Source: Helicobacter cetorum (GTDB lineage Bacteria > Campylobacterota > Campylobacteria > Campylobacterales > DZAY01). Taken from it: a DNA stretch of 64,000 bases. A program made the position numbers and the translations under genes. The DNA lies in the NCBI GenBank assembly GCA_022729735.1, contig DZAY01000002.1, positions 1 to 64,000 on the forward strand, given 5' to 3'. Positions 26,814-63,492 of the stretch are shown here, piece by piece (position 1 is the first letter of the stretch; each line of letters begins with the position of its first letter). The notes beneath the pieces are model-generated. The model was not told the origin of the DNA. It was given only the letters and a program-made list of their open reading frames with translations, and did no database searches.

Positions 26814-29303
26814 ATGAGCGACTTATTTGAGATAAACGAAGATATTCAAGAGGTAAATATTGAAGAATCTGTTAGGGAGAGTTACTTAGATTACTCTATG
26901 AGTGTAATTGTTGGTCGAGCTTTACCTGATGTTAGAGATGGTTTAAAACCTGTTCATCGAAGAATTTTGTATGCGATGCGAGAGTTGAATCTATTTAATA
27001 GTGCAAAATACAAAAAAAGTGCAAGAATAGTTGGAGATGTAATAGGTAAATATCATCCACACGGTGATAGTGCTGTTTATGAAGCACTTGTTAGAATGGC
27101 TCAAGATTTTTCAATGCGAATTCCACTCATAGATGGACAAGGTAACTTTGGTTCAATTGATGGTGATAGTGCTGCTGCTATGCGATATACAGAAGCAAAA
27201 ATGAGTGCTATGGCTGAAGAAATTTTGAAAGATATAGATAAAGATACAGTTGATTTTACTTCAAACTATGATGATACTATGCGAGAGCCAGATGTATTGC
27301 CAAGTAGAATACCAAATCTGCTTTTAAATGGTAGTTCTGGAATTGCTGTTGGTATGGCTACCAATATTCCAACTCATAATTTAAGAGAGCTAATAGATGG
27401 ATTAACTCTTTTAATTGATGATAAAGATGCTGATAATTCCAAACTTTTATCGCTAATCAAAGGACCAGATTTTCCAACTGGTGGAATAATATTTGGTAAA
27501 AAAGGGATTATTGAAGGTTATGAGAGTGGTAGAGGTAGAATTAGAGTTAGAGCAAAAACTCATATTGAAACCAAAGGCAATAGAGATGTAATTGTAATTG
27601 ATGAGCTACCATATCAAGTAAATAAAGCAAGATTAGTAGAGCAAATTGCAACTTTGGCAAAAGATAAACAGATTGAAGGAATTTCTGAAGTTCGAGATGA
27701 AAGCGATAGAGATGGAATTCGTGTTGTAATTGAGCTAAAAAAAGAGGCGATGAGTGAAATTGTGCTAAATCATCTATTTAAATCTACATCTTTAGAAACA
27801 ACTTTTGGAATAAATCTTTTAGCAATTCACAATAAAGAACCAAAACTATTTTCACTAAAAGAGATTTTGACAATCTTTTTAAATCATAGAAAAAGTGTAA
27901 TTATTAGAAGAACTATCTTTGAACTTGAAAAAGCAAGAGCAAGAGCTCATATTTTAGAAGGTTTAAAAATTGCTCTATCTAATATTGATAAAATCGTAGC
28001 ATTAATTAGAAATAGCTCCGATTCAGCAGTGGCAAAAGAGAGTTTAATAGTTGAGTTTAGTTTAAGTGAAATTCAAGCTAAATCAATTTTAGAAATGAGA
28101 TTATCAAGACTTACTTCACTTGAAGGAAATAAAATTGATGAAGAGTATAATGGACTTTTAATTGCAATTGATGGTTATGAATTGATTTTAAAAAGCGAAG
28201 TTCGACTAAATGAGATTATAAAAGAAGAGCTATTAGAAATTAGAGAGAGTTATAAATCAGAGCGAAAAACTGAAATAGTTGATGATTATGATGATATAGA
28301 TTATGAAGATTTAATCCCTAATGAGCCAAATGTAGTTACTATAACCCATCGAGGATATATCAAAAGAGTTCCACTAAAACAGTATGAAAAACAAAAAAGA
28401 GGTGGCAAAGGCAAAACTGCTTTAACTATTTATGATGATGATTTTATAGAAAGTTTCTTTGTAGCAGATACACACGATACTTTAATGTTTGTTAGTAATT
28501 TAGGACAACTTTATTGGTTAAAAGTTTATAAAATTCCAGAAGCAAGTCGAAGTGCAAAAGGTAAAGCTGTTGTAAATCTAATAGAATTAGAAGCAGAAGA
28601 GAAAATCCAATCAATTATAACTACAAAAGATTTTGCAGATGATAAGTCGCTAATATTCTTTACAAAAAATGGAGTAATTAAGCGAACAAATCTAAGCGAA
28701 TACTCAAATATTAGAAAAGGTGGAGTTCGAGCAATTGTATTAGATGAAGGCGATGAGCTAACAAATGCTGATATTGCAATAAATGATATGAAAGAAGTTA
28801 TGGTATTAAGCTCAAATGGAATGTCAATTAGATTTCCACTTGAAGATGTAAGACCAATTGGAAGAAGCACAAGAGGAGTTAGTGCAATAAAACTCAAAAG
28901 TGATGATTTTGTAGTTGGTGGAATTTTATTTAGCAATGGCACACAAGAGCTATTAATTGTTAGTCAAGGTGGCATTGGCAAACGAACTGAATTAGATGAG
29001 TATAGAGCGCAAAGCAGAGCAGGAAGTGGTGTAATATCTATGAAGATAAACAAAAAAACAGGCTCTGTTGTAGGTGGTGTGATTGTTGATGAAAGTAAAG
29101 ATTTGATGGCTCTAACAAGTAGTGGCAAAATGATTAGAGTAGATATGCAAACTATTAGAAAAGCTGGAAGAAACACAATGGGAGTTAAGATTATAACTGT
29201 TGATGATGAAAAAGTTATAAGCATTGCAGTTTGTCCAAAAAGTGAAGAGTTAGAAGATGATGAAGATGAGGGAGTTGAAGTTTCAGCTCTAATAAATGAG
29301 TGA
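26814..29303 (+). CDS. gyrA: DNA gyrase subunit A
   Basis: An 829-residue GyrA. It has the N-terminal [28 protein letters not shown] signature in pieces, the quinolone-resistance region [17 protein letters not shown] with Ser and Glu at the positions equivalent to E. coli 83 and 87 (wild type-like), the catalytic Tyr in [10 protein letters not shown], and the GyrA box KRGGKG at the start of the C-terminal DNA-wrapping propeller. It ends in an acidic tail ([10 protein letters not shown]). Confidence 0.97.
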
Positions 29304-47930: not shown

Positions 47931-50900
47931 ATGAATAATTCAGAAATATTAAACTCTAAAGAGATTAATGGAGTTAGATACGAAAAGATAAATGTTAGTG
48001 ATTTAGAAAAACTAAGAATATTAAAAGATAAAGGTTATAGACCTGTAACGGATTTAGAAACTCTAAAAGAGTTAGAAGGTTTTAAAGATAGTAGCAGTAT
48101 GTCCGAAGGGCTTAAATCCTTTGGTTATGGAATGTTAAAACCAATTAGTGCTGATTATCCTGCATCTATTGGAAAACTAATTGGTAGCAAAAGTCTTGAA
48201 AATTTTGGAAACGAAGCAAGACGAAATATTGAAGATAACTACTCAAATAGTTATAGTGGAATGCTTGGTGAAATAGCTGGAGACCCAATGACATATACAC
48301 CAATGGGACTTTATAACAAAGGCAAAAGAGCTGTTGATTTTATAAAATCACTTGCAACTGGTGGAGCAATTGGTGCAAGTAGTCAATTCGCAAGAGATTA
48401 TGGAAATCAAGATTTAACAAATAGTGAAAAGTTACAAAATAGCTTAATCGCTGGTGGAATTACTGGTGGTTTAGCTGGAGGATTAAGTCAAGTTTTTAGA
48501 AAAGTTCCAACTCCTCAATCTACATTATCACCCCAAAATCTTCAAAATGGATTGGCACAAAATGGAGAAGAATTTGGATTAAATAGCTCTAATTTCAAAC
48601 AAACTACATCACAAAATCCACAACCTCAAGCAATTCAGCAACCACAAGGAGTTATAAATGATAATAGACTTAATGATACTACTAATATCACTAATCGCGA
48701 TAGTGTTATTTATGGAGATAACAATGAAATAAATAAAGTTGAATTCAAACAAATTCCAAAACCACTTGAAACACCACAAGAAGCACTTGACTATATTCTT
48801 TATGGTAAAAAACCTATGCAAACTATTCAAGTGGTGAATGATAATGTGAAAAATCATAGATTAGAAAATCAGCTTTTTGCTTCACCTCATATTGGTAGTG
48901 GTGTTGTTGGTGGAACTGCAAATGCGACTGAAATTGATGAAAATGGTAATATGAATATTGACCCTGAAAAGTTTGTAACTGGATTTTTAGCTGGAATGGG
49001 TGCAAGTAAAGTAGGAGCTATGACATTAAGACAAACTAATCCAAATCTATATAACAATCTTTTAGGAATTGGTAAAAAACATCCAAATATGGCAAAATCA
49101 AATCCTACTCTTTTAGCAAAAATTTATAATAGCTCAAAAGATAGCTCAACTAATATGTTTGCTGGAGAAAAGGCTTTGAGTGCAAATATATCAAATTTAC
49201 AAATGGCTAAAGAGCTTGAAAAAAGTGGAGCTAATGAGGTTGATATTTGGAAAAATACAAGTTGGTTTAAAGGTGATGATGGAGAGTGGAGATTTGAAAT
49301 TAATGATAGTGATGTAACTTTTAATGATAATTTGAAAGTTGGAAAATATAAATTAAGTGAAATATTTAATCATGATAAGCTTTTTGAAAACTACCCAGAA
49401 TTAAAAGATTTTGAAGTTAAAGTCGAAAACAACAAAGGGGCTTATTATAGAGGATATTACACAAATAAATCAATCACTCTAAACAAAGCTACTGAAGGAG
49501 TGAATAAATCTACACTACTTCACGAAATTCAACATGGCATTCAAGGATTTGAAAATTTTGGACAAGGAGCAGACCCAAGACTCATATTTGATTTAAAAAT
49601 CGACCCTATTTTAAAAACTCCAGCAGCTAAAAAGTTGGCAAATATAATTAATCCGAAAGTTATGGGATTAGAAGATAAAAGTAAGATTAAAAAAATTGTT
49701 GATAATGTTTTGCAAAAACCAAAATATTATGGATTAAAAGAGATGCCAACAGAAGATGATATAAGATTAATTTATGAAATGGTAGATAAAGGCTGGAGTA
49801 GTGTATTTAAAGATTATGTGAATGGCACAAAAAGGTCGCCTCTTTGGCAAAGTGAGCGAGTGCATGGTGAAGCAGAAGCAAGACTTACACAAAATAGAGC
49901 TAACAAAGGCTATGATAATTTTCCATATGATGATTTAGATGTGCCACGAAATGAGATAAAAGACGATGCTATTGATTTTATGATGGATAATATGCAAATG
50001 TCTCCTGTTAAATCTAAAAAGCAAAAAGAACAGAGAGCAACTTTTAATGTTCAGTTTAATGGTAAAAAATCTGCAAATATTTATAGAGATAAAGATTTTA
50101 GAGATGTTGAAAATGCTATCAAGTTTGAGAGAGGTAAAGAAAATATTCATACTGGCAAAGGTTTTGGAGCTTTGCATATTGAAAAACATATCGGTGATGA
50201 CAAGGATGGGTGGATAACTGTTAAAGAGTTTTTGAATATGGGGAATGCTATTAGAAATGTTGAGCCGTATCTAAAAAATGGTAAAAGAGTCTATGAATAT
50301 AGAAATAATTTTGGAGATAGATTTAGAATTATTATTGGAGATGATAATAAGAGAGAAAGAGTTATAACATTTTACTCAAATAGAAAGGCTGGGTTCGGCA
50401 ACGATAGCCAAAATTACATTTACAACCAGCCTTCTAACGAAACTCTATCACCACAAAACTTAGAAGATAATAAACTCAATCCAAATATGCGAGGTGGTTT
50501 TGTTGATAATCAGTTAATATCAGATGGTGCAGAAACTATAAAAGATAGTTGGGATAAGCTAAAAATTCTATTTTCAAATACTTTGCCACGAGATTATATG
50601 GGATTGCGAGAAGAGACTATCACAAATATGAGTAAAGCATCTCACCAAATGGAAACTCTACATAAAGCATTAAAAAGACTTGATGAAAATGATAGAGTTG
50701 CACTTCATGAATATATGGTTGGAGACAAAGTTGATATAAAATCTGAACTGAAAACTATTGGTGATAGCTTTAGAGCAGAAGTCAAAGACTTAGAAAAAGA
50801 GTTGGTAACAAATGGTGTTTTAAGTCAAGAAGCTTTTGATGAGTGGAGTGAAAAATATCTACATAGGATTTATAAAGGTAGCTTTAAAAACTCTATGAAT

Positions 50901-52661
50901 AACCTATTTAGTCGAGGTTTTACAGTTGATAAAATCAGACAAAGAGGATTGAAACTCAAAACAAGAGACAATAAAAGAGTTATCGAATTTGTAAATGATT
51001 TTCTAAAATCCAAAAATTTAGAACCTCTAAATATTAGCTCAAACTCAATTCCACTCACTATAAAACATTTAGAAAATATGGGATTAATTGGCAAAGTTGG
51101 AGATGGCAAGATTAATTATAGCTTTGGGAAAAATGGAAAAATAACTCTAAATAGAGATTATACATACAATGAGCGAACAGAAATGGGTGAAATTAGAGAT
51201 ATAGCAGTAACTCTACCAGAGACAATTCTAAGATTAAAAAAGTTAAAAGAGCATAGCAATTTATTAAAAGAGGTGCAACAAAAGAGTGATATTATAAGCG
51301 ATGCAGAAACTGATGGCTTTAAACAGTTAAAAGTTTCATCTATGTATGGAGTTTTGAGTGGAAAATATGTGAGAGAAGATGTATATTATGATTTAGTCAA
51401 AATGGGTGATGATATACACGGAACTATATTTGGAAATAATAGCCTAATTGCTAAATTATGGCTTGGCTATTTAAGAATTTGGAAAAAAGCCAAAACTGTT
51501 TGGCATGCACCAGCCCACTTAAACAATCTAATATCAAATATCTTTCTTATGAATGTAGCAGGTGTTCCAGCTAAAAATATAGTTAGTGGTTATGGAAAAG
51601 CTATCCAAATGATGAAAAATGCTAAAAAACTTGATGAGTTAGAGCAGTTAAAACTCTTAAATATAGCAACAAAAGAGCAGTTAGATGAGTTAGATGATTT
51701 AATTAAAAATCAAAATATGGGCTTATACAAAGAAGCAAAAGAGCTTGGCATTCTTGGTAGAAGTCAAATAAATGAGATGTTGCGAAGTGATAGCGAAATA
51801 TTTGGAAATAAAAATATATTTAGCAAAGCAGATGATTTTATGAGTAAGCTTTATCAAAATGAAGATGCAGTTAATCGACTAATCGCTTATAAGTTTTTCA
51901 GAGAAAAGAACTTTAGCAAAGAAAAAGCCAAAGAAATTGTTACAGATATTATGCCAGATTATACCAAACCACTACCACAAGGTTATCGACTGCTAAAAGA
52001 TAGTGGAGTAAGTCCATTTATTAGTTGGAGCTATTATGTTTTGCCAAAGCTAATTCGGCGAATAGCTACAACCAAAGCAGGAGCTACAAGTGTCATTACT
52101 GTATTAAGCACTTTAGGAGCATTAGAATATATCTTATCAGATATATCACCTTTAGACCATATGCCTTTTATGGATACAGATTTACCAGACGATTTCAAAG
52201 GTAGAAAAGTTGCAATTGGCAAAAGTGGAGACACTATTCACACTTTAAATGCTGACAAAATGGTACCTTATTTAGGGCTTTTAAATCCTCAAAACTTTGC
52301 ATCAGGATTGCTTAGTGGAGTTTCAACAAGTATGGCATTTAATGCAATTGAAGGCTTAAACCCAAATATGGATTTGAGGAGAATTTATGATGGTAGAGCA
52401 ATAAGCTCCAAAACAAAAAGCACAAGTGATAGAGCAATAGACTACATAAAATATTTAGCACAACAATATGTGCCACTTCCTCAACAAGCTTATAGCACTT
52501 ATAATTATGTAGAAGCTATGAATAAACCAGAACATAGACGAAAAGTTAGTGATGTTGTATTACCAAAAACCACAGCTCAAGGACTTTTGCAACTACTTGG
52601 TATAAATCTTAGAGACTATTCAGCAAATGGATTAAAAAGAGAGCAGTATAAAAAAGAATAA
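47931..52661 (+). CDS. Giant phage internal/polyvalent protein with HExxH motif
   Basis: A 1576-residue protein. Residues about 60-185 include Gly-rich hydrophobic stretches (GGAIGASSQFA, GGITGGLAGGL). Residues 531-535 form HEIQH, the zinc-peptidase HExxH pattern. Residues about 740-825 (GFGALHIEKHIGDD ... ERVITFYSNRK) resemble the PBECR-type nuclease fold of phage polyvalent proteins. The C-terminal third has hydrophobic helices and the segment AKTVWHAPAHLNNLISNIFL, similar to LPD38-like regions of phage internal proteins. Such proteins are carried in the head and ejected with DNA. It is the last gene of the plus-strand structural region. Confidence 0.65.
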   Translation: MNNSEILNSKEINGVRYEKINVSDLEKLRILKDKGYRPVTDLETLKELEGFKDSSSMSEGLKSFGYGMLKPISADYPASIGKLIGSKSLENFGNEARRNIEDNYSNSYSGMLGEIAGDPMTYTPMGLYNKGKRAVDFIKSLATGGAIGASSQFARDYGNQDLTNSEKLQNSLIAGGITGGLAGGLSQVFRKVPTPQSTLSPQNLQNGLAQNGEEFGLNSSNFKQTTSQNPQPQAIQQPQGVINDNRLNDTTNITNRDSVIYGDNNEINKVEFKQIPKPLETPQEALDYILYGKKPMQTIQVVNDNVKNHRLENQLFASPHIGSGVVGGTANATEIDENGNMNIDPEKFVTGFLAGMGASKVGAMTLRQTNPNLYNNLLGIGKKHPNMAKSNPTLLAKIYNSSKDSSTNMFAGEKALSANISNLQMAKELEKSGANEVDIWKNTSWFKGDDGEWRFEINDSDVTFNDNLKVGKYKLSEIFNHDKLFENYPELKDFEVKVENNKGAYYRGYYTNKSITLNKATEGVNKSTLLHEIQHGIQGFENFGQGADPRLIFDLKIDPILKTPAAKKLANIINPKVMGLEDKSKIKKIVDNVLQKPKYYGLKEMPTEDDIRLIYEMVDKGWSSVFKDYVNGTKRSPLWQSERVHGEAEARLTQNRANKGYDNFPYDDLDVPRNEIKDDAIDFMMDNMQMSPVKSKKQKEQRATFNVQFNGKKSANIYRDKDFRDVENAIKFERGKENIHTGKGFGALHIEKHIGDDKDGWITVKEFLNMGNAIRNVEPYLKNGKRVYEYRNNFGDRFRIIIGDDNKRERVITFYSNRKAGFGNDSQNYIYNQPSNETLSPQNLEDNKLNPNMRGGFVDNQLISDGAETIKDSWDKLKILFSNTLPRDYMGLREETITNMSKASHQMETLHKALKRLDENDRVALHEYMVGDKVDIKSELKTIGDSFRAEVKDLEKELVTNGVLSQEAFDEWSEKYLHRIYKGSFKNSMNNLFSRGFTVDKIRQRGLKLKTRDNKRVIEFVNDFLKSKNLEPLNISSNSIPLTIKHLENMGLIGKVGDGKINYSFGKNGKITLNRDYTYNERTEMGEIRDIAVTLPETILRLKKLKEHSNLLKEVQQKSDIISDAETDGFKQLKVSSMYGVLSGKYVREDVYYDLVKMGDDIHGTIFGNNSLIAKLWLGYLRIWKKAKTVWHAPAHLNNLISNIFLMNVAGVPAKNIVSGYGKAIQMMKNAKKLDELEQLKLLNIATKEQLDELDDLIKNQNMGLYKEAKELGILGRSQINEMLRSDSEIFGNKNIFSKADDFMSKLYQNEDAVNRLIAYKFFREKNFSKEKAKEIVTDIMPDYTKPLPQGYRLLKDSGVSPFISWSYYVLPKLIRRIATTKAGATSVITVLSTLGALEYILSDISPLDHMPFMDTDLPDDFKGRKVAIGKSGDTIHTLNADKMVPYLGLLNPQNFASGLLSGVSTSMAFNAIEGLNPNMDLRRIYDGRAISSKTKSTSDRAIDYIKYLAQQYVPLPQQAYSTYNYVEAMNKPEHRRKVSDVVLPKTTAQGLLQLLGINLRDYSANGLKREQYKKE

Positions 52662-52664
52662 GAA

Positions 52665-54059
52665 TTAAGTTGAGATAGAAGAAAATGCCTTTAAAGCATT
52701 TTTTTTGAAGTCTTTAATATACTCTTTTTCATCTATCTGCTCTATATCATTTTTTAAAAGCCATTTTATATCTTGATATTTATTTTGATTAATCTCTTCT
52801 TTTTTTGTGCATCCAATCAATATAATACCAGGGATAACATTATTAGTATCACTAGCTTTAAATGAATACACTGCTATTGGCTGACTATCATTTAATATTT
52901 CTATATCAATTCCAAAATCTTCTTTATATGTTCTTTTCGCAGTATCTTCAAAAGTTTCATTAAATTTAATTTGACCACAACCAAATTCCCATATATTTGG
53001 AAATCTTTTTTTATTACTTGGTCTTAAAGCTGTTAAAATTTTTGTTTTGTCGCTATTAAAGCATATTAAAGCAACATGAACTTCTGATATTTTATCAAGT
53101 TGAACTTCATTATCTTGTTCTGGTTTAGATTCAGTGATTTTTTTAATAATTGCATCAATATCATCAATTTGATTTATATCTTCAAATATTTTTTCAAGTT
53201 TTTCAATATTATCTAATTTGTTTTTTTTAATTTTATACTTCAATGTTTCTATCAACTCATTATCAAAATGTTCATCATAAAAAAACATAGTTTCACTATT
53301 CCAATTCTCACTATACCAAATGATTGGATATTTATGAGTTCTCCAAATTCCTTTTAGTTTTTCATAAGAAACTATTTTTAAATTTTTATCAATATTTCCA
53401 GTTTGCCCATTGAGTTTATGTTTATCTTTTAATATTTGTCTATTTTTAAATAACAAATATGCTAACTTAGCTCCAACTGCTATTACTCCATGATGTGAAT
53501 ATTTAGATATTCTAAAGCCCAAATCAATCTCAAAACCTAAAAAATCAGGTTTTAACATTGTTTGAATATTATTATTTTCAAAAGGTGGAGAAAAAATTAT
53601 ATTAGTTGCTTTTTCAGAATTATCTTTAGTATCTATTGCTTTTACTTGTTCATCTACAACATCTGCTATCCAAGCCGTAGTTTTGATATATAATTTATCA
53701 AAAAAATGTGATTTTTTATTAAGTTCTTTTTCAACATCTTTTATAACCTTATAAATATAAGGTAATGATTTAAATAGCTCCTCTTCTTTTGTAACTTTCA
53801 AATAAAATAGGACTTCGTCACCAATAAATTTCCAAATTTTTAAATTTTGAAGAGGACTATTCTCTTTTTTTATCAATTCTTTACTGATACGATAATAAAA
53901 ATCATTAAATGTAATATACCACTCTTGATTTCTAATTTTATATTCAGTAGCATTAGCTAAATCAAAAGATAAAAGAAGATATATCCCATCTCGATTATTT
54001 TTTGCTTCTTGATAGATACTATTATCTACTTGATTAGTTATTTTATCTTTTAAACTCAT
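52665..54059 (-). CDS. Class III nucleotide cyclase-like domain fused to a Nudix domain
   Basis: A 464-residue protein. The N-terminal domain (about residues 22-240) has the class III cyclase layout: first metal Asp33 in SFDLANAT, the hairpin IWKFIGDEVLFY with Gly80-Asp81-Glu82, the strand LYIKTTAWIADV, and DFLGFEIDLGFRISKYS (residues 172-188), which corresponds to the conserved G-x-x-[VI]-N/D-x-[AG]-x-R segment. The C-terminal domain (about 325-455) is Nudix, with box G362-x5-E368-x7-R376-T-Y-K-E-D-F-G. The second Glu of the usual RE is Thr and EE is ED, so hydrolysis may be altered. It follows the immA-like gene by 3 bases. The Pycsar-type cyclase link is an inference from fold and location. 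Confidence 0.75.
   Translation of the reverse strand: MSLKDKITNQVDNSIYQEAKNNRDGIYLLLSFDLANATEYKIRNQEWYITFNDFYYRISKELIKKENSPLQNLKIWKFIGDEVLFYLKVTKEEELFKSLPYIYKVIKDVEKELNKKSHFFDKLYIKTTAWIADVVDEQVKAIDTKDNSEKATNIIFSPPFENNNIQTMLKPDFLGFEIDLGFRISKYSHHGVIAVGAKLAYLLFKNRQILKDKHKLNGQTGNIDKNLKIVSYEKLKGIWRTHKYPIIWYSENWNSETMFFYDEHFDNELIETLKYKIKKNKLDNIEKLEKIFEDINQIDDIDAIIKKITESKPEQDNEVQLDKISEVHVALICFNSDKTKILTALRPSNKKRFPNIWEFGCGQIKFNETFEDTAKRTYKEDFGIDIEILNDSQPIAVYSFKASDTNNVIPGIILIGCTKKEEINQNKYQDIKWLLKNDIEQIDEKEYIKDFKKNALKAFSSIST
52682..52706 (+). terminator. Terminator of the plus-strand structural operon
   Basis: Stem AAAATGC/GCATTTT with loop CTTTAAA is followed by a run of T on the plus strand. It lies inside the 3' end of the convergent cyclase-Nudix gene. 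Confidence 0.7.
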
Positions 54060-54062
54060 TTA

Positions 54063-54599
54063 TTACCACTTAAATATTCCTAACCATTTTCCACGATTTT
54101 TAGCAGCCTCAACAGATACTGCAAAATGATTAGCTACTTCCTGAATATTGCAAATTCCATTATTAGTGTTATTAATTACAACTTTTTTATATTCATCTTC
54201 TGGCATAAGTAAAGCAGCTGAAAATTCATGTGCATCATACTCTTCTTCAGAATATCCTCTTCTTGCATAAACAGTATCTTCATAATCAACTGATTTTTCC
54301 CACTCATCTTTGTTTAAATATTTCATATGCAAAAATAGATGTCCTATTTCATGACATAATGTAAATTTTTTTCTCTCATCACTTGAGTAGTTTGCACTAT
54401 TTAATATAATTTTAAAACTATTTACATTTCTTTTAATAATTCCATCTATATCTATATCCAATATGGCAGTTTCAACTTTACCTTCGAGTTCTTCTACGAA
54501 GCTTACTAAATCTTTAAATGTTAAAGGAGTTTTCAAATTAGCTTCTTTTCTAATAATTTCAGCCAATTCATTTATTTGTCTTCGTCTTATTGTTGTCAT
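54063..54599 (-). CDS. ImmA/IrrE family metallopeptidase
   Basis: A 178-residue protein. The zinc motif is HEIGH (His83, Glu84, His87) in LCHEIGHLFLHM; the downstream family signature is EYDAHEFSAALLMPEDEY, and a C-terminal helix-turn (VANHFAVSVEAAKNRGKWLG) is also typical. In mobile elements such peptidases cleave cognate XRE repressors; IrrE/DdrO is the Deinococcus example. Here no XRE gene is adjacent; the partner is the cyclase-Nudix gene 3 bases downstream. The upstream region has its own promoter-like sequences and an 18-base inverted repeat. Confidence 0.88.
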   Translation of the reverse strand: MTTIRRRQINELAEIIRKEANLKTPLTFKDLVSFVEELEGKVETAILDIDIDGIIKRNVNSFKIILNSANYSSDERKKFTLCHEIGHLFLHMKYLNKDEWEKSVDYEDTVYARRGYSEEEYDAHEFSAALLMPEDEYKKVVINNTNNGICNIQEVANHFAVSVEAAKNRGKWLGIFKW

Positions 54600-54636
54600 T
54601 TTATTTCCTAATAAAATAAAATATATTATGTGTCAA

Positions 54637-54654
54637 TATAACATATAAGTTATA
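54637..54654 (-). promoter_or_regulatory. Inverted repeat upstream of the immA-like gene
   Basis: TATAAC-ATATAA-GTTATA, two perfect 6-bp arms, 38 bases before the ATG. A TTGACA (minus strand, near 54634) and TATATT-like boxes overlap it. It is a plausible operator for a repressor of the cassette. Confidence 0.45.
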
Positions 54655-54661
54655 AATAAGC

Positions 54662-54688
54662 TATAAAATTAGGTAGCCTTAGCTACCT
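54662..54688 (-). terminator. Terminator of the packaging operon
   Basis: On the minus strand AGGTAGC and GCTACCT (7-bp stem, loop of four) are followed by TAATTTTAT. The 13-bp unit TAGCTACCTTTAT is also tandemly repeated at 54680-54692 and 54693-54705, ending on the stop codon of the scaffold-like gene. The hairpin separates the packaging genes from the immA/cyclase cassette. Confidence 0.55.
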
Positions 54689-54701
54689 TTATTAGCTACC
54701 T

Positions 54702-55190
54702 TTATTTATTCATATCCAAAATATATTGACCTAATTCAAACTTATTGGCTTTACCACCTTTGACTTTTGATGTTAAATCTTCATCACCTTTTGAGCCATT
54801 TACACCACTATCAAGAATTGGGTCAGGTTTAGTTTTTGGCGACATTTCAGCTTTTACAGCCTTATAAATCATATCAAGTCCAGCAGGGTCAAGTCTTGCT
54901 TGTTTAGCTAAATCAGGACTTAGTTTTGCTAACTCTTTTTCTATGAACTCTTTTGGCACATCAGGATACCGTTTAGAAACTTCAGCTTCAACCTCCTTTG
55001 CTTTTAGATTGTTCTCTAAGACATCTAAACCTAAAATCGCTTTAGCTTTTGCTAACTCTTCCATATCTATATCATTTTGCTGAATTGGTTGCTGAATTTG
55101 TGTTGGCTGTTGTTGAATTGGTGGTTGCATTGGTTGAGGTTGTGGCTCTTGAATTGGCTCTTGAATGATTGGTGGTTGAATTGGTTGCAT
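54702..55190 (-). CDS. Probable capsid scaffolding protein
   Basis: A 162-residue protein with a Pro/Gln-rich N-terminus (residues 1-40), helical acidic middle and a basic C-terminal end (SKVKGGKANKFELGQYILDM). Position after the portal gene, low complexity start and helical content are typical of phage scaffold/head-assembly proteins, but homology is not certain. Confidence 0.5.
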   Translation of the reverse strand: MQPIQPPIIQEPIQEPQPQPMQPPIQQQPTQIQQPIQQNDIDMEELAKAKAILGLDVLENNLKAKEVEAEVSKRYPDVPKEFIEKELAKLSPDLAKQARLDPAGLDMIYKAVKAEMSPKTKPDPILDSGVNGSKGDEDLTSKVKGGKANKFELGQYILDMNK

Positions 55191-55213
55191 ATTATTCTCC
55201 TAAATTTTTATTT

Positions 55214-55450
55214 TTATTTTTTTTCATTTAACTCTTCTTCTAACTCTTTTATTAAACTCTCTCTTAATCCTATGGCATATCCTACTCCTTTCATCTGTTC
55301 TAATTTATGAGTTCGCACACTATCGCTTAAATCACTTCTCATAGCCTCACTAAATAAGCTGTTGTATCGCTCCATCATCTGCTCTTGTAGAGCTTTGTAT
55401 ATTTTGTTCTCCCCCAACTCCTTCAACTCCGTTATCGTCTCTATTATCAT
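55214..55450 (-). CDS. Small helical phage protein overlapping the portal gene
   Basis: A 78-residue charged helical protein. The ATG at 55450 is 6 bases after GGAG and is preferred over the ATG at 55456, which directly abuts GGAG. About 100 bases overlap the end of the portal gene in another frame, a larger overlap than others here. No family is recognised. Confidence 0.55.
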   Translation of the reverse strand: MIIETITELKELGENKIYKALQEQMMERYNSLFSEAMRSDLSDSVRTHKLEQMKGVGYAIGLRESLIKELEEELNEKK

Positions 55451-56969
55451 CTGCATCTCCTATTATTTTTTTTATATCTCTAAATCCCAAAAGTGTCATT
55501 TTTTGTTTCACCATCATATCAAGAGCTTTACCATATCTTGCAACTCTATCCATATCACCAAGACTTCCCAAAGTCGCCATTGTTTGTGTTAGAGTTAGCA
55601 TTCCACTATCAATATTTCTAATTTGCATATCTTTATTTACTGCACCAACTCCAGCATTTATGACAACTCTCAAAGGCATATAATTTTCTCTATTCACTCC
55701 ATAAAATCTATAACTCTGACTATATTTAAATAGCAACTTCACCATTCTTGCAATCAAAGGTTCAAAAAAGCTTTCATTCAATGCTCTAATAATATCTTCT
55801 ATCACTTCGTTTCCACTTTGAGTTAATAAACTCATACCTGTTGCTGTTTGATTTAGTGAGCCTTTATCTGTTAAGCCTTGATTATATTTGGTAATTCCAC
55901 TCATCTCTTGCATCTCACTATCTAATCTATCTGTATTAAAAATTGATTGATTGATATTTGGAGCTGGTAGCTGTTGCACTCCATCGATACTATTTACAAC
56001 TATCTTTTTGATATTCCCATTTAAATCTTCATCTTTCAGCCCACTACCTCTTGTAGTTAGCCATCGTGGATTTAGCTGTAAATCTATTGCATCAAGCTGT
56101 TGGTTTCTTGTGATGATATATTCTTGTTGGATTGATAACATAGGCTTTATAAAGCTATCTCCATAAGCTCTCACTGCAAAGTTTTCAGAAAACGGAATAA
56201 ATTGAGGATAAACAAAGCCTATTATAAATGGTAATCCATCGTTTAATTCGGTATCTATTCGCAAAAACTCATCACCAATTAGTGTGGATACAAACCAAAC
56301 ACCATTTTGTTTGCGATAAACCTCAACAACTTCAACCCTTGCATAATCTCCAATCTCTTTTGAAGTATCACTCTTGACATCACCAAAAGCACTTGAGCCA
56401 ATATATTTAGTAAAATCTATCTTCTTTCCAAAAGCTTTGGTTAAATCTTCAATAGTCATATCTGTTTTATGAACTAAATATCTCACATCATAACTATTGG
56501 AGCAATCAGGGTCAAAATATACATCTTTAGGTGATACTCTTTGCAGTTTGATAGTTTCATTCCAATAAATTTTTAAAACCGTGATGCCATAAACAAGCAC
56601 ATCAACTAAATTTGGTGAAATAAGAGTGTAGAGATTTGCTTTTGTATTTACATATTCATCCAACTCATCTTGCAAAATCTTCGCAACTCTTATATCTTCT
56701 TCATAATCTGTAAGTGGATAAAGTTTGGCAAACTCATCATTTGCAAAATATGTCTTTTTTATATCTTGCACAACTTTTCTAACTTTATTTTGAATGAGAT
56801 AATAGGTAATTAAAGATTTTCTTCGCTTCATCAGTGATAATTTTTGCTCACTTGAAATAGTGCTTAAATATCCATTTTCTAAAGCTTGAAACTGCTCTTT
56901 ATATTTATCAAATCCTCTTCTTGCTTCATCTCTTAGAGTTATTATTTTTTGCTTAACATCATCTTGCAT
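55350..56969 (-). CDS. Phage portal protein
   Basis: A 539-residue protein. Features of P22-type/SU10-like portals are visible: an N-terminal helical domain, VSPKDVYFDPDCSNSYDVRYLVHK (the clip/wing region), PFIIGFVYPQFIPFSENFAVRAYGDSFIKP and the crown helices QMSGITKYNQG. The portal forms the dodecameric ring for DNA packaging. The start ATG at 56969 has GGAG at good spacing. Confidence 0.85.
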   Translation of the reverse strand: MQDDVKQKIITLRDEARRGFDKYKEQFQALENGYLSTISSEQKLSLMKRRKSLITYYLIQNKVRKVVQDIKKTYFANDEFAKLYPLTDYEEDIRVAKILQDELDEYVNTKANLYTLISPNLVDVLVYGITVLKIYWNETIKLQRVSPKDVYFDPDCSNSYDVRYLVHKTDMTIEDLTKAFGKKIDFTKYIGSSAFGDVKSDTSKEIGDYARVEVVEVYRKQNGVWFVSTLIGDEFLRIDTELNDGLPFIIGFVYPQFIPFSENFAVRAYGDSFIKPMLSIQQEYIITRNQQLDAIDLQLNPRWLTTRGSGLKDEDLNGNIKKIVVNSIDGVQQLPAPNINQSIFNTDRLDSEMQEMSGITKYNQGLTDKGSLNQTATGMSLLTQSGNEVIEDIIRALNESFFEPLIARMVKLLFKYSQSYRFYGVNRENYMPLRVVINAGVGAVNKDMQIRNIDSGMLTLTQTMATLGSLGDMDRVARYGKALDMMVKQKMTLLGFRDIKKIIGDADDNRDDNGVEGVGGEQNIQSSTRADDGAIQQLI

Positions 56970-57213
56970 TTCTGTTTCTCCTTTTTGCTCTTTCAAACCG
57001 TTTTCTATGAATTCGCAAAGCATTTTGTATAGATTTTTGGCTCATTCCAGCACTCACAAAGTTATCAATTATCAAGTTTTCAACATATCTAAGTGAAATA
57101 TATAAATGGATTTTGTCATATTTTGTCGCCATTCGATAAAGCTTAAATATATTTCCATCGCATATATCCATAAGTATTGCAATATTTAAATCAACTCCAT
57201 CTTTTTTAAACAT
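56959..57213 (-). CDS. Small HTH-like phage protein
   Basis: An 84-residue protein (MFKKDGVDLNIAILMD). Its C-terminal half (NLIIDNFVSAGMSQKSIQNALRIHRKRFERAKRR, in pieces) looks like a helix-turn-helix with a basic tail. It is squeezed between terL and the portal gene: one-base overlap (TAATG) with terL and 11-base overlap with the portal gene. Confidence 0.6.
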   Translation of the reverse strand: MFKKDGVDLNIAILMDICDGNIFKLYRMATKYDKIHLYISLRYVENLIIDNFVSAGMSQKSIQNALRIHRKRFERAKRRNRNAR

Positions 57214-59225
57214 TACCAAACACCACCATAAGTTGAATACAAATGATGCTCACTTTCTCTAAGTCTCTCTTCTTCCATTTCAAACTCTTTATCAACCACA
57301 ATATCAAAAAATGTTAATGCAACTGCTTCAGCTCTATCTGGACTTCTACCAAGCTCTTTTTTTATATCAGCTTTTGGAATTATCATAAGCTTTCCTTTTT
57401 CACTATACATAAACCTCGTCGCATTCAAATCACCAAGCAACATATCATCATTTGGAAGTTTCATAGATTTAAGGTTATTGCTAAATTCATAATATATTTC
57501 AGCCCTCTTATTTACATAAATATCTTTTGAAGGTCGATTTGATACATTCGCACTTATTACAGGAAGTCCGAGCTGAATACATCTATCATACACACCAGCA
57601 CCAATTCCAATACTATCTATAAATATCGCTTTTGGCTTTTCTTTTGCACTTTGATACTCATAAGCAACAAAACTTGCCAACTCCATCGTGGATAAATTTT
57701 CTTTTGTGATTAGTTGGCTCAAATAATAACCTTTTCGCTTAGCCAAAACAGAGCTATCATCTCCAAACCTTGCTACATCTAATCCCCAAACCATAGCACC
57801 ACTCTTATCAACTGCTTCTCTTGCAACTGCATCTTCTAAATCTGCAACAGCAAATAAACTATCGCTACTACTTCGTGGAAACTCACCCAATACTCGAACT
57901 CTATATACATCACTATCAGTTCCATACTCTTTTTGTCGTCGCTCAATTACTGCTTTTGATACATTTGGGCTATCTTCTGCATTGAATGTAAATAGCTTAA
58001 ATAAATCTCTATTTTTATGAAATGAGTTATAAAAATATCCACTTGTTCTCGTTGGATTTCCCGTCATAATCAAGATATTATGCACACCAGTTAATGCACC
58101 ATCTATAACTTCAAATATATTTTCAGGCACACCACTCGCTTCATCAACAATGAATAGAAGATTTGTAGCATGAAAACCTTGCATAGCTTCTGGATTTTCT
58201 TTCCTTGCTGTTCTTGCAACTGCGAAGTTGTTATTAGAAAAGCTCACCTTATCCACTTTTACATCTACACTTGTTTGCATAAATTCAGGTAGCTTTGATT
58301 TCCATTTTCTAATTTCAGGTATCATTATGTTTAATAATTGTGGAGCTGATGGAGCTGTCATTGGAATTTTGCAATCATATTTTGCCAATCCAGCCCATAA
58401 AGTTATCCAAGATAAGAGACCAGTTTTACCAGTATTATGAAGAACTATAAAATCTGCTCCTAAAAATTTATGATTTCCATCTAACTCAAATCCATAATAA
58501 TCTCCTTCACCTAAAAATTCAACGGATTTAATACCAAAATGCAAATTATTTCTTTGCCTTTTAACTTCTATCCTATTAAATCTTTTTGTTGGTATTTCGT
58601 CTATATCTAAAGCTTTTGATACTATATTTTTTTTATCACCTAAATATATTTTATCACCCCTACTTGCACCATCACCTAACCAAGCTCCTAACTTATAAGG
58701 TTCTACTTCTAAATTAACTTCATCTTTGACTAAAGACTTTCTATAAAAAGCATGAGTTCGTTTTTTTCTATTGCTCCACTTTAGCCAATCTCTAATTGTA
58801 ACTGTAATTTTATCTCCAGCTATTTGACTACCATGAGTTTGTGTTGAAACTAAACATAATATATGGCTTTCATTAAATTCATACACTGTTCCATCATTTA
58901 AAGTAAATCGATACATATTTTCTCTACCGCGATATAGCTCTAATACATTTCTTGGAGTGCTATCATCACCCATTAGAATATCTCCAACTTTTACATCTTC
59001 AACTACCTTTGTATCGCAATTATGGAGCATAACTTTTGTCCCTTTTGCAAAACATCCATGACCTGATTTAATGCTAATTCTCTTTTCGCCATTATCTATT
59101 GCTTTTATCACTTCTAACTGTTGAGTTGTTGGGTTTGCTTTTAAAGCATACAGCACAAAATATTCAAGCTTTTGACACATTTTCACAAAATCCAAAAGTT
59201 TATTAGTGGTTGCCACTTGAGCCAT
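57213..59225 (-). CDS. terL: Terminase large subunit, interrupted by an intein
   Basis: A 670-residue translation product. Without the intein (residues 58-264) it is 463 residues, a normal TerL. The spliced Walker A reads SGHG-TGKTGLLSW. Walker B is LLFIVDEASGV. The nuclease domain has WGLDVARFGDDSS, FIDSIGIGAGVYDR and DRAEAVALTFFD with the metal-binding aspartates. It powers DNA packaging and cuts concatemers. It overlaps terS by 23 bases. Confidence 0.93.
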   Translation of the reverse strand: MAQVATTNKLLDFVKMCQKLEYFVLYALKANPTTQQLEVIKAIDNGEKRISIKSGHGCFAKGTKVMLHNCDTKVVEDVKVGDILMGDDSTPRNVLELYRGRENMYRFTLNDGTVYEFNESHILCLVSTQTHGSQIAGDKITVTIRDWLKWSNRKKRTHAFYRKSLVKDEVNLEVEPYKLGAWLGDGASRGDKIYLGDKKNIVSKALDIDEIPTKRFNRIEVKRQRNNLHFGIKSVEFLGEGDYYGFELDGNHKFLGADFIVLHNTGKTGLLSWITLWAGLAKYDCKIPMTAPSAPQLLNIMIPEIRKWKSKLPEFMQTSVDVKVDKVSFSNNNFAVARTARKENPEAMQGFHATNLLFIVDEASGVPENIFEVIDGALTGVHNILIMTGNPTRTSGYFYNSFHKNRDLFKLFTFNAEDSPNVSKAVIERRQKEYGTDSDVYRVRVLGEFPRSSSDSLFAVADLEDAVAREAVDKSGAMVWGLDVARFGDDSSVLAKRKGYYLSQLITKENLSTMELASFVAYEYQSAKEKPKAIFIDSIGIGAGVYDRCIQLGLPVISANVSNRPSKDIYVNKRAEIYYEFSNNLKSMKLPNDDMLLGDLNATRFMYSEKGKLMIIPKADIKKELGRSPDRAEAVALTFFDIVVDKEFEMEEERLRESEHHLYSTYGGVW
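58434..59054 (-). other. Mini-intein in the terminase Walker A motif
   Basis: A 207-residue intein. It starts with Cys58 (CFAKGTKVML, block A), has a block B-like VYEFNESHILCLVS, a LAGLIDADG-like relic KLGAWLGDGAS, block F YYGFELDGNHKFLGADF, and ends LHN (His263, Asn264) before extein Thr265. Splicing joins GHG to TGKT. Only one weak endonuclease motif remains and there is no room for a full homing endonuclease, so it is probably immobile but splicing-competent. Confidence 0.92.
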
Positions 59226-59706
59226 CTTTTACTCCATTATTTATGATAGTTTGATTGAAATTTGCCATAATTACAGCTATATCATTATGATTTTCTCCAA
59301 TAGTTACGGTCGTTCTTAACTCTCTTAAATATTTATAAGCTTGCACTAATGCTATCAAATTTCCACTTGTTGGCTTTTTGAAATAAACCTCTTCAAGTGC
59401 TTCTATAAGCTCTGTAATCTTTTCATAATCTCTATCATCAAGCTTATCTTTCATCTCTTTTAAATTGATACTCTTTTTTTTTACTTCATCACTTTTTAGC
59501 TTTTCAATCTTTTTCATTTTCCACTTATAAGTGCTTTCCCAACCTTGCAAAGTGTGAAGTGGAATATCTTTTTTTAGTTTTGATTTTAGAAGTGTTTGAA
59601 TTTCTTGAAGTTGAAAATCATCAAGATACAATTGAAGTGCATAATCCAAAACCACATCGTGAGTTAGCTTTTTTTTCTTAGCTTCTTTTTTTTCTGCTAT
59701 ATTCAA
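59203..59706 (-). CDS. terS: Terminase small subunit-like protein
   Basis: A 167-residue protein with an N-terminal DNA-binding region (THDVVLDYALQLYLDDFQLQEIQTLLKSKL, HTLQGWESTYKWK) and a helical C-terminal oligomerisation region. The position just upstream of terL with a 23-base overlap supports TerS, although the family match is by pattern rather than strong signature. Confidence 0.68.
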   Translation of the reverse strand: MNIAEKKEAKKKKLTHDVVLDYALQLYLDDFQLQEIQTLLKSKLKKDIPLHTLQGWESTYKWKMKKIEKLKSDEVKKKSINLKEMKDKLDDRDYEKITELIEALEEVYFKKPTSGNLIALVQAYKYLRELRTTVTIGENHNDIAVIMANFNQTIINNGVKDGSSGNH

Positions 59707-60254
59707 ATTTGCACCCTCTTGACTAATTTTGAAAGCTCATTATTTACAGCAACTGGTAAATTTGTTTTTTGCTTAGATTTAATGACTATATAGCTATTAA
59801 AATCTTCATAGAGTTTGTGATATTGATAAGCTCGATACATTGCCAATTTATCACCAAAAGCTTGATTTATAATATTTAACTCAACATCATTCAAAAGTGG
59901 CTCATTTTGGCTTTTAAACTCTTTTAAATCTATATTTTGCAGTAGCTCTTCGATATTTATATTTTTTGATACGACTATCTTTTCTAAATATTCACAAAGC
60001 TTAATAACTTTTGGAACTAAAGTGAAATATTTAGATTTAAACTCTACTCTTATTTGCGCTTCTTTTTCTATTTTATATTTTTTTGCTAATTTGCTAAGCA
60101 GTGAAATAGATTTAAACTCTTCACTTCTCACAAAATCCACATACAGAGCCTTATAATCTCGCTCACTAATTTCGCTCAAAATCTCTTCTACAACAAAGCT
60201 ATCTTCATAATCAAAGCCGACAATATGTCTTGCGATTTTATTAATTAACTCCAA
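59703..60254 (-). CDS. Hypothetical phage protein
   Basis: A 183-residue helical protein (MELINKIARHIVGFDYEDSF). No family is recognised. It overlaps terS by 4 bases and the upstream replication-like gene by 14 bases, so it belongs to the same operon. Confidence 0.55.
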   Translation of the reverse strand: MELINKIARHIVGFDYEDSFVVEEILSEISERDYKALYVDFVRSEEFKSISLLSKLAKKYKIEKEAQIRVEFKSKYFTLVPKVIKLCEYLEKIVVSKNINIEELLQNIDLKEFKSQNEPLLNDVELNIINQAFGDKLAMYRAYQYHKLYEDFNSYIVIKSKQKTNLPVAVNNELSKLVKRVQI

Positions 60255-61801: not shown

Positions 61802-62323
61802 ATGTTTGGAGAAAATCTAAAAAAAATAAGAGAAAATAGAAAGTTATCGCAAACAGAATTGGTTGATAGAGTGAATAATATTCTTGGAACAAATTACACA
61901 TATGAAAACATAAAGTCGTGGGAAAAAGGCACAAATCCAAAAGTTGAAGTAATATCAGCATTAGCCGAAGCTTTGGGAGTTTTAGAACAAGATTTTTTTA
62001 ATGGAAATGAAAAACAGAGGATTAATTCAATTAAAAATTTATTGTCTAATTTAAATGAACATGAACTTAACTATGTTAAAAATATTCTTGGAATTTCTGG
62101 TGATATACAAGTTCATCATTCACCAAATACATATATAGCTAATGGTAATATTAGTATAAATACACAAAATTTAGCTGAAGATAAAGAAGAAATAAAAGAA
62201 ATATTAGAACTAATGGAATATGCTCCAAAAATATTTTTTAGAAAGCTCAAAGCTGATTTAGTAAAGTTAAAAAAATCTACTTATGAAGTAATTGGTGCAT
62301 CTACTATGGAAGCTGTGCGATAG
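61802..62323 (+). CDS. CI-like phage repressor
   Basis: A 173-residue protein with an N-terminal XRE HTH (NLKKIRENRKLSQTELVDRVNN, SWEKGTNPKVEVISALAEALGV). The C-terminal part is helical and has no LexA-type peptidase motif, so SOS autocleavage is not expected. It may instead be controlled by the antirepressor at 32680 or by the ImmA-like peptidase at 54063. Confidence 0.82.
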   Translation: MFGENLKKIRENRKLSQTELVDRVNNILGTNYTYENIKSWEKGTNPKVEVISALAEALGVLEQDFFNGNEKQRINSIKNLLSNLNEHELNYVKNILGISGDIQVHHSPNTYIANGNISINTQNLAEDKEEIKEILELMEYAPKIFFRKLKADLVKLKKSTYEVIGASTMEAVR

Positions 62324-62338
62324 GGAGTGGAATAAAAT

Positions 62339-62554
62339 ATGGGCGAAACTGTTGTTATATTTATTGTTATTTTATGTGTGCTATATTTGATAATTAGTTA
62401 TTTTAGTGATAAAAAAAATTTACAGGAAGTTGAAAAAAAACTCATAAAAGAGGTAGAAGAACTTACAATAAAAGAAAATGAGCTAAAAATAAAATTTGAA
62501 AATTTCAAAAAAAATCATCCTGATATTTTAAAGTTTAGAAATATACGACCATGA
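62339..62554 (+). CDS. Small membrane protein with coiled coil
   Basis: A 71-residue protein with a transmembrane helix (residues 4-22, VVIFIVILCVLYLIISYF) and a charged coiled coil. It overlaps the Mrr-like nuclease gene by 4 bases, and the two may act together. Confidence 0.65.
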   Translation: MGETVVIFIVILCVLYLIISYFSDKKNLQEVEKKLIKEVEELTIKENELKIKFENFKKNHPDILKFRNIRP

Positions 62555-63492
62555 ATTTATATAGTTTAAGAAAATTAGTAGTTAGTTTAAATGATAGGGT
62601 TCAAGTTTTAAAAACATCAATTGAAAATTTAAAATCAAAAACTGATTTAGCTCAAAAGTGTGAGCATAATGTGGCTGGTGCCTATTTATATCCTTTGCTA
62701 TGCACTAAATGCACAGAAGCTTTTTATGAATTTTGTAAGTTAAATAATGTGTCATTTTATCATTATAAAGAGTTGGTAGATTTTGAAGAACAAAAATTAA
62801 AAAAAGAAGCAATTAAAAGAAAATTAGAAGAAGAACAAAAAAGAATAGAAGAAGAACAAAAAATATTAAGAGATAAAAAAGAAGCTGAATATATTAAAGG
62901 TATAAAAAAATATGGAAAAGATTTATATGACTATATGACTAAAAGTCATTTATCAAATGAGGAATTAGGGCTTAGATATGAGAGATATATAGGCTATTTA
63001 TTTGAAAAAATTGGATATAAAGTTGAATACCATGGTGCTATAAATAAAAAACAAGATAGAGGTATTGATTTAATTGTTCATTATAATAAAGCTATTATGC
63101 TGATACAATGTAAAAGATATGGCAAAGATAATGTAATTCGTGAGAATACTATCACTCAATTAGTAGGAACTCTTTCTGTTTATAAAAATAAATATAATAA
63201 AAATTTTCTTGTAGGAGCATATCTATATACTCAAAATGATAATTTAGATAATAATGCAAAAGAAGCTCTAAAATATTTAAAAAAAGATTATCAAATAGAA
63301 CATGTAGTTGAAAAATATGACCCTAATTATCCAATGATAAAATGTAATATTGGACAAAAAGGCGATAAAATATATCATTTGCCAATAGATGCTTTATATG
63401 ATAAAATCAAAATAGAGGTTAATAAGGGTGAGTGTTATGTTCATACTGAAACAGAGGCTCAAAAATTGGGTTTTAGAAGGACAAAGATATAA
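62551..63492 (+). CDS. Mrr-like restriction endonuclease
   Basis: A 313-residue protein. Residues about 20-70 contain several Cys (CTKC near residue 51), followed by a long coiled coil (residues 78-120). Residues 135-235 form the Mrr-type PD-(D/E)xK nuclease: RYERYIGYLFEKIGY, Asp173 in DRGIDLIV, and Gln186-Cys-Lys188 in LIQCKRYG. The C-terminus (about 268-313, CNIGQKGDKIYHLP ... EAQKLGFRRTK) resembles the 'sunset' domain. It lies in the lysogeny region, where phage-exclusion genes are common; Mrr enzymes cut modified DNA. Confidence 0.82.
   Translation: MNLYSLRKLVVSLNDRVQVLKTSIENLKSKTDLAQKCEHNVAGAYLYPLLCTKCTEAFYEFCKLNNVSFYHYKELVDFEEQKLKKEAIKRKLEEEQKRIEEEQKILRDKKEAEYIKGIKKYGKDLYDYMTKSHLSNEELGLRYERYIGYLFEKIGYKVEYHGAINKKQDRGIDLIVHYNKAIMLIQCKRYGKDNVIRENTITQLVGTLSVYKNKYNKNFLVGAYLYTQNDNLDNNAKEALKYLKKDYQIEHVVEKYDPNYPMIKCNIGQKGDKIYHLPIDALYDKIKIEVNKGECYVHTETEAQKLGFRRTKI

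What the first reader, a model, noticed from the sequence alone, without database searches (positions are those of the whole stretch)
52665..54599. Accessory cassette: ImmA/IrrE peptidase plus nucleotide cyclase-Nudix fusion
The sequence shows a two-gene unit with a 3-base gap, its own upstream inverted repeat and a terminator before it, placed where the two late phage operons converge. One protein is an ImmA/IrrE peptidase (HEIGH). The other fuses a class III cyclase-like domain (Asp33, Gly80-Asp81-Glu82, DFLGFEIDLGFRIS) to a Nudix domain with an altered box (R-T-x-K-E-D). Class III cyclases are the signal makers of Pycsar antiphage defence, and Nudix enzymes act on nucleotides. I know of no described system joining a peptidase and a cyclase-Nudix in this way. 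The inference is that it is a defence or inter-phage exclusion system in which a nucleotide signal, made or degraded by the fusion, is tied to a protease.
Basis: partly seen in the sequence, partly recalled or inferred. Interest (0 to 1): 0.86.

Follow-up and report, generated by a model that had tools for sequence, protein, structure and literature searches.

The report
Phage-borne protease–cyclase signalling pair
This prophage carries a two-gene unit, a protein-cutting enzyme and a signal-nucleotide maker, that recurs across many bacterial phyla and in some relatives sits beside the membrane-acting protein of a known anti-phage alarm (Pycsar), so it is probably an undescribed branch of that kind of defence.

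Summary
The two genes are real and exactly as described: ImmA/IrrE peptidase (54063-54599, -) followed after 3 nt by a class III cyclase–Nudix fusion (52665-54059, -). An AlphaFold model (pLDDT 87.5) matches solved class III cyclases plus a Nudix fold, and the cyclase catalytic positions are kept in nearly all of 88 relatives. The pair is not unique to this phage: 60 of 90 non-redundant relatives from phages, plasmids and chromosomes of many phyla have ImmA directly upstream, and the two proteins co-vary (r=0.86). A Pycsar-type membrane effector (PycTM, Pfam PF18967) lies beside the pair in 13 of the 60, about a thousandfold above its background, and is the commonest Pfam family among immediate neighbours. 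The window copy has no PycTM next to it or elsewhere in its genome. I rate it a new variant of a known kind (Pycsar-like signalling with an obligate protease). Function, product and protease target remain untested.

The parts
54063..54599 (-). ImmA/IrrE-family zinc peptidase, 178 aa, first gene of the pair
   Evidence: Pfam M78 1.3e-13; PADLOC capP 2.5e-25; zinc ligands and catalytic Glu kept in 59-60 of 60 partners; the model that contains it matches CapP 7t5t
54339..54353 (-). HEIGH zinc-binding motif (residues 83-87)
   Evidence: sequence; H83 59/60, E84 59/60, H87 60/60 in the family
52665..54059 (-). class III cyclase-Nudix fusion, 464 aa, second gene of the pair
   Evidence: AF2 pLDDT 87.5, pTM 0.79; full-length homologues phiC2p41 and PHROG 6174
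53310..53990 (-). class III nucleotide cyclase domain (about residues 24-250): D33, K77, D81, D172, D179, R183, K236
   Evidence: fold matches CyaC, CyaB and mammalian adenylyl cyclase; residues kept in 84-88 of 88
53130..53273 (-). helical linker between cyclase and Nudix domains (about residues 263-310)
   Evidence: secondary structure of the model
52728..53093 (-). Nudix-fold domain (about residues 323-444)
   Evidence: Pfam NUDIX 3.5e-7; PADLOC PDC-S07 1.9e-12; Foldseek MutT-type structures
52908..52976 (-). degenerate Nudix box GQIKFNETFEDTAKRTYKEDFGI (residues 362-384)
   Evidence: catalytic Glu positions not conserved in 17 relatives
54637..54654 (.). perfect palindrome upstream of the pair, possible operator
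   Evidence: unique exact match in the window; 0.5 matches expected at up to 1 mismatch
54671..54688 (-). terminator-like hairpin between the portal operon and the cassette

Best explanation
The cassette is an accessory 'moron' of a Campylobacterota prophage that encodes the core of a Pycsar-like nucleotide-signalling module: an ImmA/IrrE protease and its dedicated class III cyclase. Most likely the two proteins are one sensing unit. The protease, like its relatives CapP and PprI, responds to a sign of infection such as single-stranded DNA and controls the cyclase by cutting it or a bound partner; the cyclase then makes a cyclic nucleotide that triggers a lethal or growth-stopping effector. 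Where a PycTM gene is adjacent, that effector is a membrane-disrupting protein. The degenerate Nudix domain probably reads out a nucleotide ligand. Shown here: both folds, intact catalytic residues, conserved gene order, co-variation, enrichment of PycTM, loss of the Nudix catalytic box. Inferred: enzymatic activity, the signal, the order protease-then-cyclase, the trigger, and defence as the outcome. For the window copy the effector is unknown.
For: Pair confirmed. Cyclase fold with catalytic residues kept in 84-88 of 88. ImmA directly upstream in 60 of 90 non-redundant loci, gaps mostly -30 to +15 nt; ImmA and cyclase distances correlate at r=0.86 over 60 pairs against at most 0.14 in 2000 permutations. 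PycTM next to 13 of 60 pairs and 0 of 30 ImmA-free loci; Pfam E 3e-12 for phiC2p40, 1.2e-11 for L008, 7.2e-11 for L009; PADLOC PycTM up to 2.9e-31. Commonest Pfam family among 146 neighbours and commonest PADLOC family. In 36 carrier genomes (156 Mb) 7 of 12 PycTM genes lie in the module against about 0.006 expected. PycTM recurs in three separate parts of the tree. ssDNA activation of ImmA/IrrE-type proteases is published for CapP (PMC13373217) and PprI (PMC10904395).
Against: The window copy has no PycTM beside it and its genome has none; 47 of 60 pairs have none either. No experiment shows defence. PADLOC found no cyclase model match. The model of ImmA and cyclase as one chain gave no confident joint arrangement (pTM 0.63 against 0.79 for the cyclase alone). 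ImmA-free versions exist in a Sphingomonadales/Phenylobacterium clade beside SpoIIE/STAS genes and in Mycoplasmataceae, so the cyclase can work without the protease. Co-variation of the pair would also follow from joint transfer alone.
Confidence: 0.5

Rival explanations
1. The protease is the effector: the cyclase senses infection, its cyclic nucleotide activates ImmA, and ImmA cuts a host or phage protein; PycTM is an optional second effector.
For: ImmA is the constant partner while PycTM is optional (13 of 60); phage-borne members in the window, Treponema and actinobacterial loci have no other recognised adjacent effector.
Against: The 178-aa ImmA has no recognisable nucleotide-binding domain; where PycTM is adjacent it is the more natural receptor.
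Confidence: 0.2
2. A lysogeny switch rather than defence: cyclase and ImmA sense host state and ImmA cleaves the phage repressor, as in ImmR-ImmA of ICEBs1.
For: XRE/HTH (7-8) and S24-type repressor genes (6) are the next commonest neighbours after PycTM; Treponema phage copies lie directly behind a CI-like repressor; LE1 and phiC2 copies lie near immunity genes.
Against: The window repressor (61802-62323) is 7 kb away; repressors are common in prophages anyway; the PycTM enrichment is unexplained by this model.
Confidence: 0.15
3. A toxin-antitoxin-like pair in which ImmA is a safety catch that degrades or silences the cyclase until infection.
For: Regulator-first gene order with overlapping or near-overlapping ends; ImmA matches RmrA and spr1629-type antitoxin models.
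Against: Those models also contain an N-terminal part (about 130 positions) that is missing here; no toxicity data.
Confidence: 0.15

Closest known systems
Pycsar (PycC cyclase + PycTM or PycTIR)
   Same: class III cyclase fold; PycTM effector gene beside 13 of 60 relatives, including Clostridioides phage phiC2
   Different: obligate ImmA protease; cyclase family unrecognised by PADLOC; base-selecting positions differ from published PycCs (PMC11224242); no PycTM at the window locus
CapH-CapP regulators of CBASS and other immune operons
   Same: ImmA/IrrE protease at the head of a nucleotide-signalling operon; PADLOC capP hit 2.5e-25; Foldseek hit to CapP 7t5t; the two families of DNA-damage regulators CapW/BrxR and CapH+CapP are reported next to BREX, Pycsar, CBASS and DISARM operons (PMC13373217)
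   Different: no CapH repressor in the window pair; ImmA is shorter, covering positions 3-148 of the 242-position profile, and goes with the cyclase, not with a repressor
Leptospira phage LE1 ORF1/ORF2 and Clostridioides phage phiC2p41/p42
   Same: direct homologues of both genes in the same order; the likeness between these two phages is noted in the phiC2 record
   Different: annotated as hypothetical/DUF955; the LE1 protein lacks the Nudix domain
SpoIIE/STAS-linked chromosomal cyclases of Sphingomonadales and Phenylobacterium
   Same: same cyclase family
   Different: no ImmA; beside SpoIIE phosphatases and STAS proteins
Panoptes (mCpol + membrane effector)
   Same: antiphage nucleotide signalling in a small gene set (PMC12657218)
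   Different: different cyclase family; resemblance by analogy only, details from general knowledge

Membership tests
Pycsar | class III cyclase with two metal-binding Asp | tested here: met
   fold; D33 86/86 and D81 87/87 of sequences with a letter there
Pycsar | member of the known PycC sequence families | tested here: not met
   no PADLOC cyclase model matched the window protein (E up to 1) or relatives (E up to 10); the Tal et al. 2021 clades could not be compared directly, and that PADLOC holds PycC models is from memory
Pycsar | published pyrimidine-selecting residues (Phe two before the first metal Asp in clades D and E; R/Q or K near the second) | tested here: not met
   S31 in 86/86; K77 (R in 3) and D172 (E in 1), an adenylate-type pair (PMC11224242)
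Pycsar | adjacent PycTM or PycTIR effector | tested here: not met
   none beside the window pair and no PycTM in its genome; met in 13 of 60 relatives
Pycsar | makes cUMP or cCMP and protects against phage | not testable with these tools
   needs biochemistry and plaque assays
CapH-CapP | ImmA/IrrE peptidase with HExxH and distal Glu | tested here: met
CapH-CapP | adjacent HTH repressor CapH as substrate | tested here: not met
   no HTH gene beside the window pair; phage repressor 7 kb away
Nudix hydrolase | Nudix fold | tested here: met
Nudix hydrolase | catalytic box GX5EX7REUXEEXGU | tested here: not met
   second Glu is T and last Glu is D in the window; in 17 members Glu at 5, 4, 5 and 0 of the four Glu positions
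Class III adenylate/guanylate cyclase | metal Asp pair, base-contacting Lys/Asp, transition-state Asn and Arg, phosphate Lys | tested here: inconclusive
   all kept except Asn, which is Asp (D179) in 88 of 88; position matching by motif, from general knowledge of mammalian adenylyl cyclase; activity untested

The most novel reading that the evidence does not exclude
A widespread, undescribed branch of Pycsar-like anti-phage signalling in which an ImmA/IrrE protease is the obligate partner of the cyclase; in phage-borne copies without a membrane effector the protease itself would carry out, or trigger, the response to a cyclic-nucleotide alarm.
Probability: 0.4. Interest if true: 0.8.

Novelty: new variant of a known kind. 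Interest (0 to 1): 0.62.

Why it matters
If right, a cyclase family that current family models miss would extend Pycsar-like signalling to phages and plasmids of many phyla, including C. difficile prophages and Leptospira plasmids, and would tie a protease directly to a cyclic-nucleotide alarm. phiC2p40-42 is a ready three-gene test case.

Tried and rejected
Single-sequence scan of genome contigs found nothing, solved with an alignment. Nudix as a signal-degrading enzyme: rejected on the box. PycTM in trans in the host genome: none found. ImmA-cyclase complex by one-chain AF2: inconclusive. Shared operator with the phage repressor: the palindrome is not repeated near 61.5 kb. Guessing PADLOC accessions for PycC gave AbiU, PrrC and PifA instead, and four PycTM genes outside the module were not next to a relative of this cyclase, so no direct PycC comparison was made. 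Literature searches for an ImmA-cyclase pair found no description; Tal et al. 2021 and Burroughs et al. 2015 are not held. No Rfam RNA at 50000-60000 and no tRNA in the window.

Full report
Observation. Pfam finds Peptidase_M78 (1.3e-13) and NUDIX (3.5e-7), nothing for the N-terminal domain. The cassette sits between the convergent + strand late gene and the - strand terminase/portal operon, behind a terminator-like hairpin. The portal's best-matching relatives are in Campylobacter and Helicobacter prophages, and the two inspected (one of each genus) lack the cassette near the portal, so it is an accessory insert in a Campylobacterota-type prophage. None of 199 other genomes drawn from the phylum holds a detectable relative of the fusion at E 1e-3, though one distant family member was found in Thiovulum (L122).

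Cyclase. An AlphaFold2 model with 53 relatives is confident (pLDDT 87.5, pTM 0.79). Foldseek matches Nudix structures and class III cyclases (CyaC, CyaB, mammalian adenylyl cyclase). Sequence profiles do not reach any solved cyclase, so the family is remote. In 88 aligned relatives the residues expected for catalysis are almost invariant: D33, D81 (metals), K77 and D172 (base contact), R183, K236; the usual transition-state Asn is Asp (D179) in all. The genome scan used a pattern over the D[FY][LI]GxxID stretch and the viral scan also W[KR]xxGDE, so those positions are partly selected, but D33 and K236 are not. The residue two before D33 is Ser throughout, where characterised PycCs of clades D and E have Phe (PMC11224242). 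The nucleotide made is therefore open; the K/D pair hints at a purine (inference from general knowledge of adenylyl cyclases).

Nudix. In 17 members the box has lost its catalytic residues; of its canonical positions only the hydrophobic one at 17 (Tyr) is invariant. A ligand-binding role is inferred; the NrtR Nudix domain with ADP-ribose is among the fold matches.

The pair. Across 90 non-redundant loci from phages, plasmids, viral contigs and genomes, 60 have ImmA immediately upstream on the same strand. Zinc and catalytic residues of ImmA are kept in 59-60 of 60. ImmA and cyclase distances correlate at r=0.86. Of the 30 without ImmA, most form one supported clade (100/99) of mainly Sphingomonadales and Phenylobacterium members beside SpoIIE and STAS genes; others are cut by contig ends or an integrase. 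Mycoplasmataceae copies, read with code 4, also lack ImmA.

Link to Pycsar. PycTM-like genes flank 13 of the 60 pairs, among them phiC2p40 (Pfam 3e-12; PADLOC 2.9e-31). A Pfam and PADLOC scan of 146 immediate neighbours puts PycTM first. In 36 carrier genomes 7 of 12 PycTM genes lie in the module, against about 0.006 expected. PycTM is concentrated among the Nudix-bearing pairs (10 of 16 against 3 of 44), to which the window belongs, and recurs in two other parts of the tree.

Limits. The window copy lacks PycTM, as do 47 of 60 pairs, and its genome has none. Fusing ImmA to the cyclase in one AF2 chain lowered pTM to 0.63, so no interface is claimed. Gene calls in neighbours were crude, which if anything loses matches. 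Absence of a description is limited to an open-licence library; the original Pycsar paper could not be read.

Mechanism. Because PycTM, where present, is the natural effector, and because the ImmA/IrrE-type proteases CapP and PprI respond to ssDNA (PMC13373217; PMC10904395), I favour the protease as sensor or licensing factor of the cyclase. Protease-as-effector, lysogeny switch and safety catch remain live rivals.

Noticed in passing
window 57213-59225 (-), about residues 58-263: The terminase large subunit appears split by an intein placed in its Walker A motif (GHG|C...HN|TGKTG); Hint domain PF05203 E 8.2e-19.
   Followed up: partly
window 62551-63492 (+): Mrr-type restriction endonuclease gene (PF04471, 8.2e-10) next to the phage-type HTH repressor at 61802-62323: a second possible defence gene.
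   Followed up: no
window 47931-52661 (+): 1576-aa polyvalent-type phage protein with an LPD23 domain (7.9e-20).
   Followed up: no
L080, L086, L090, L097, L113, L114: ImmA-free chromosomal members of the same cyclase family lie beside HAMP-SpoIIE phosphatases or STAS proteins, suggesting a host-signalling offshoot.
   Followed up: partly
L076 10040-10864, L077 10064-10864: Mycoplasmataceae chromosomes (code 4) encode ImmA-free copies of the cyclase with intact motifs.
   Followed up: partly
L152 2249-2788 (-): A PycTM-domain protein outside the module lies beside a large divergent gene whose start looks FecR-like (by eye), not a relative of this cyclase.
   Followed up: no
G000: The window's genome is listed with 7.4% contamination; gyrA at 26814-29303 lies on the same contig as the prophage.
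   Followed up: no
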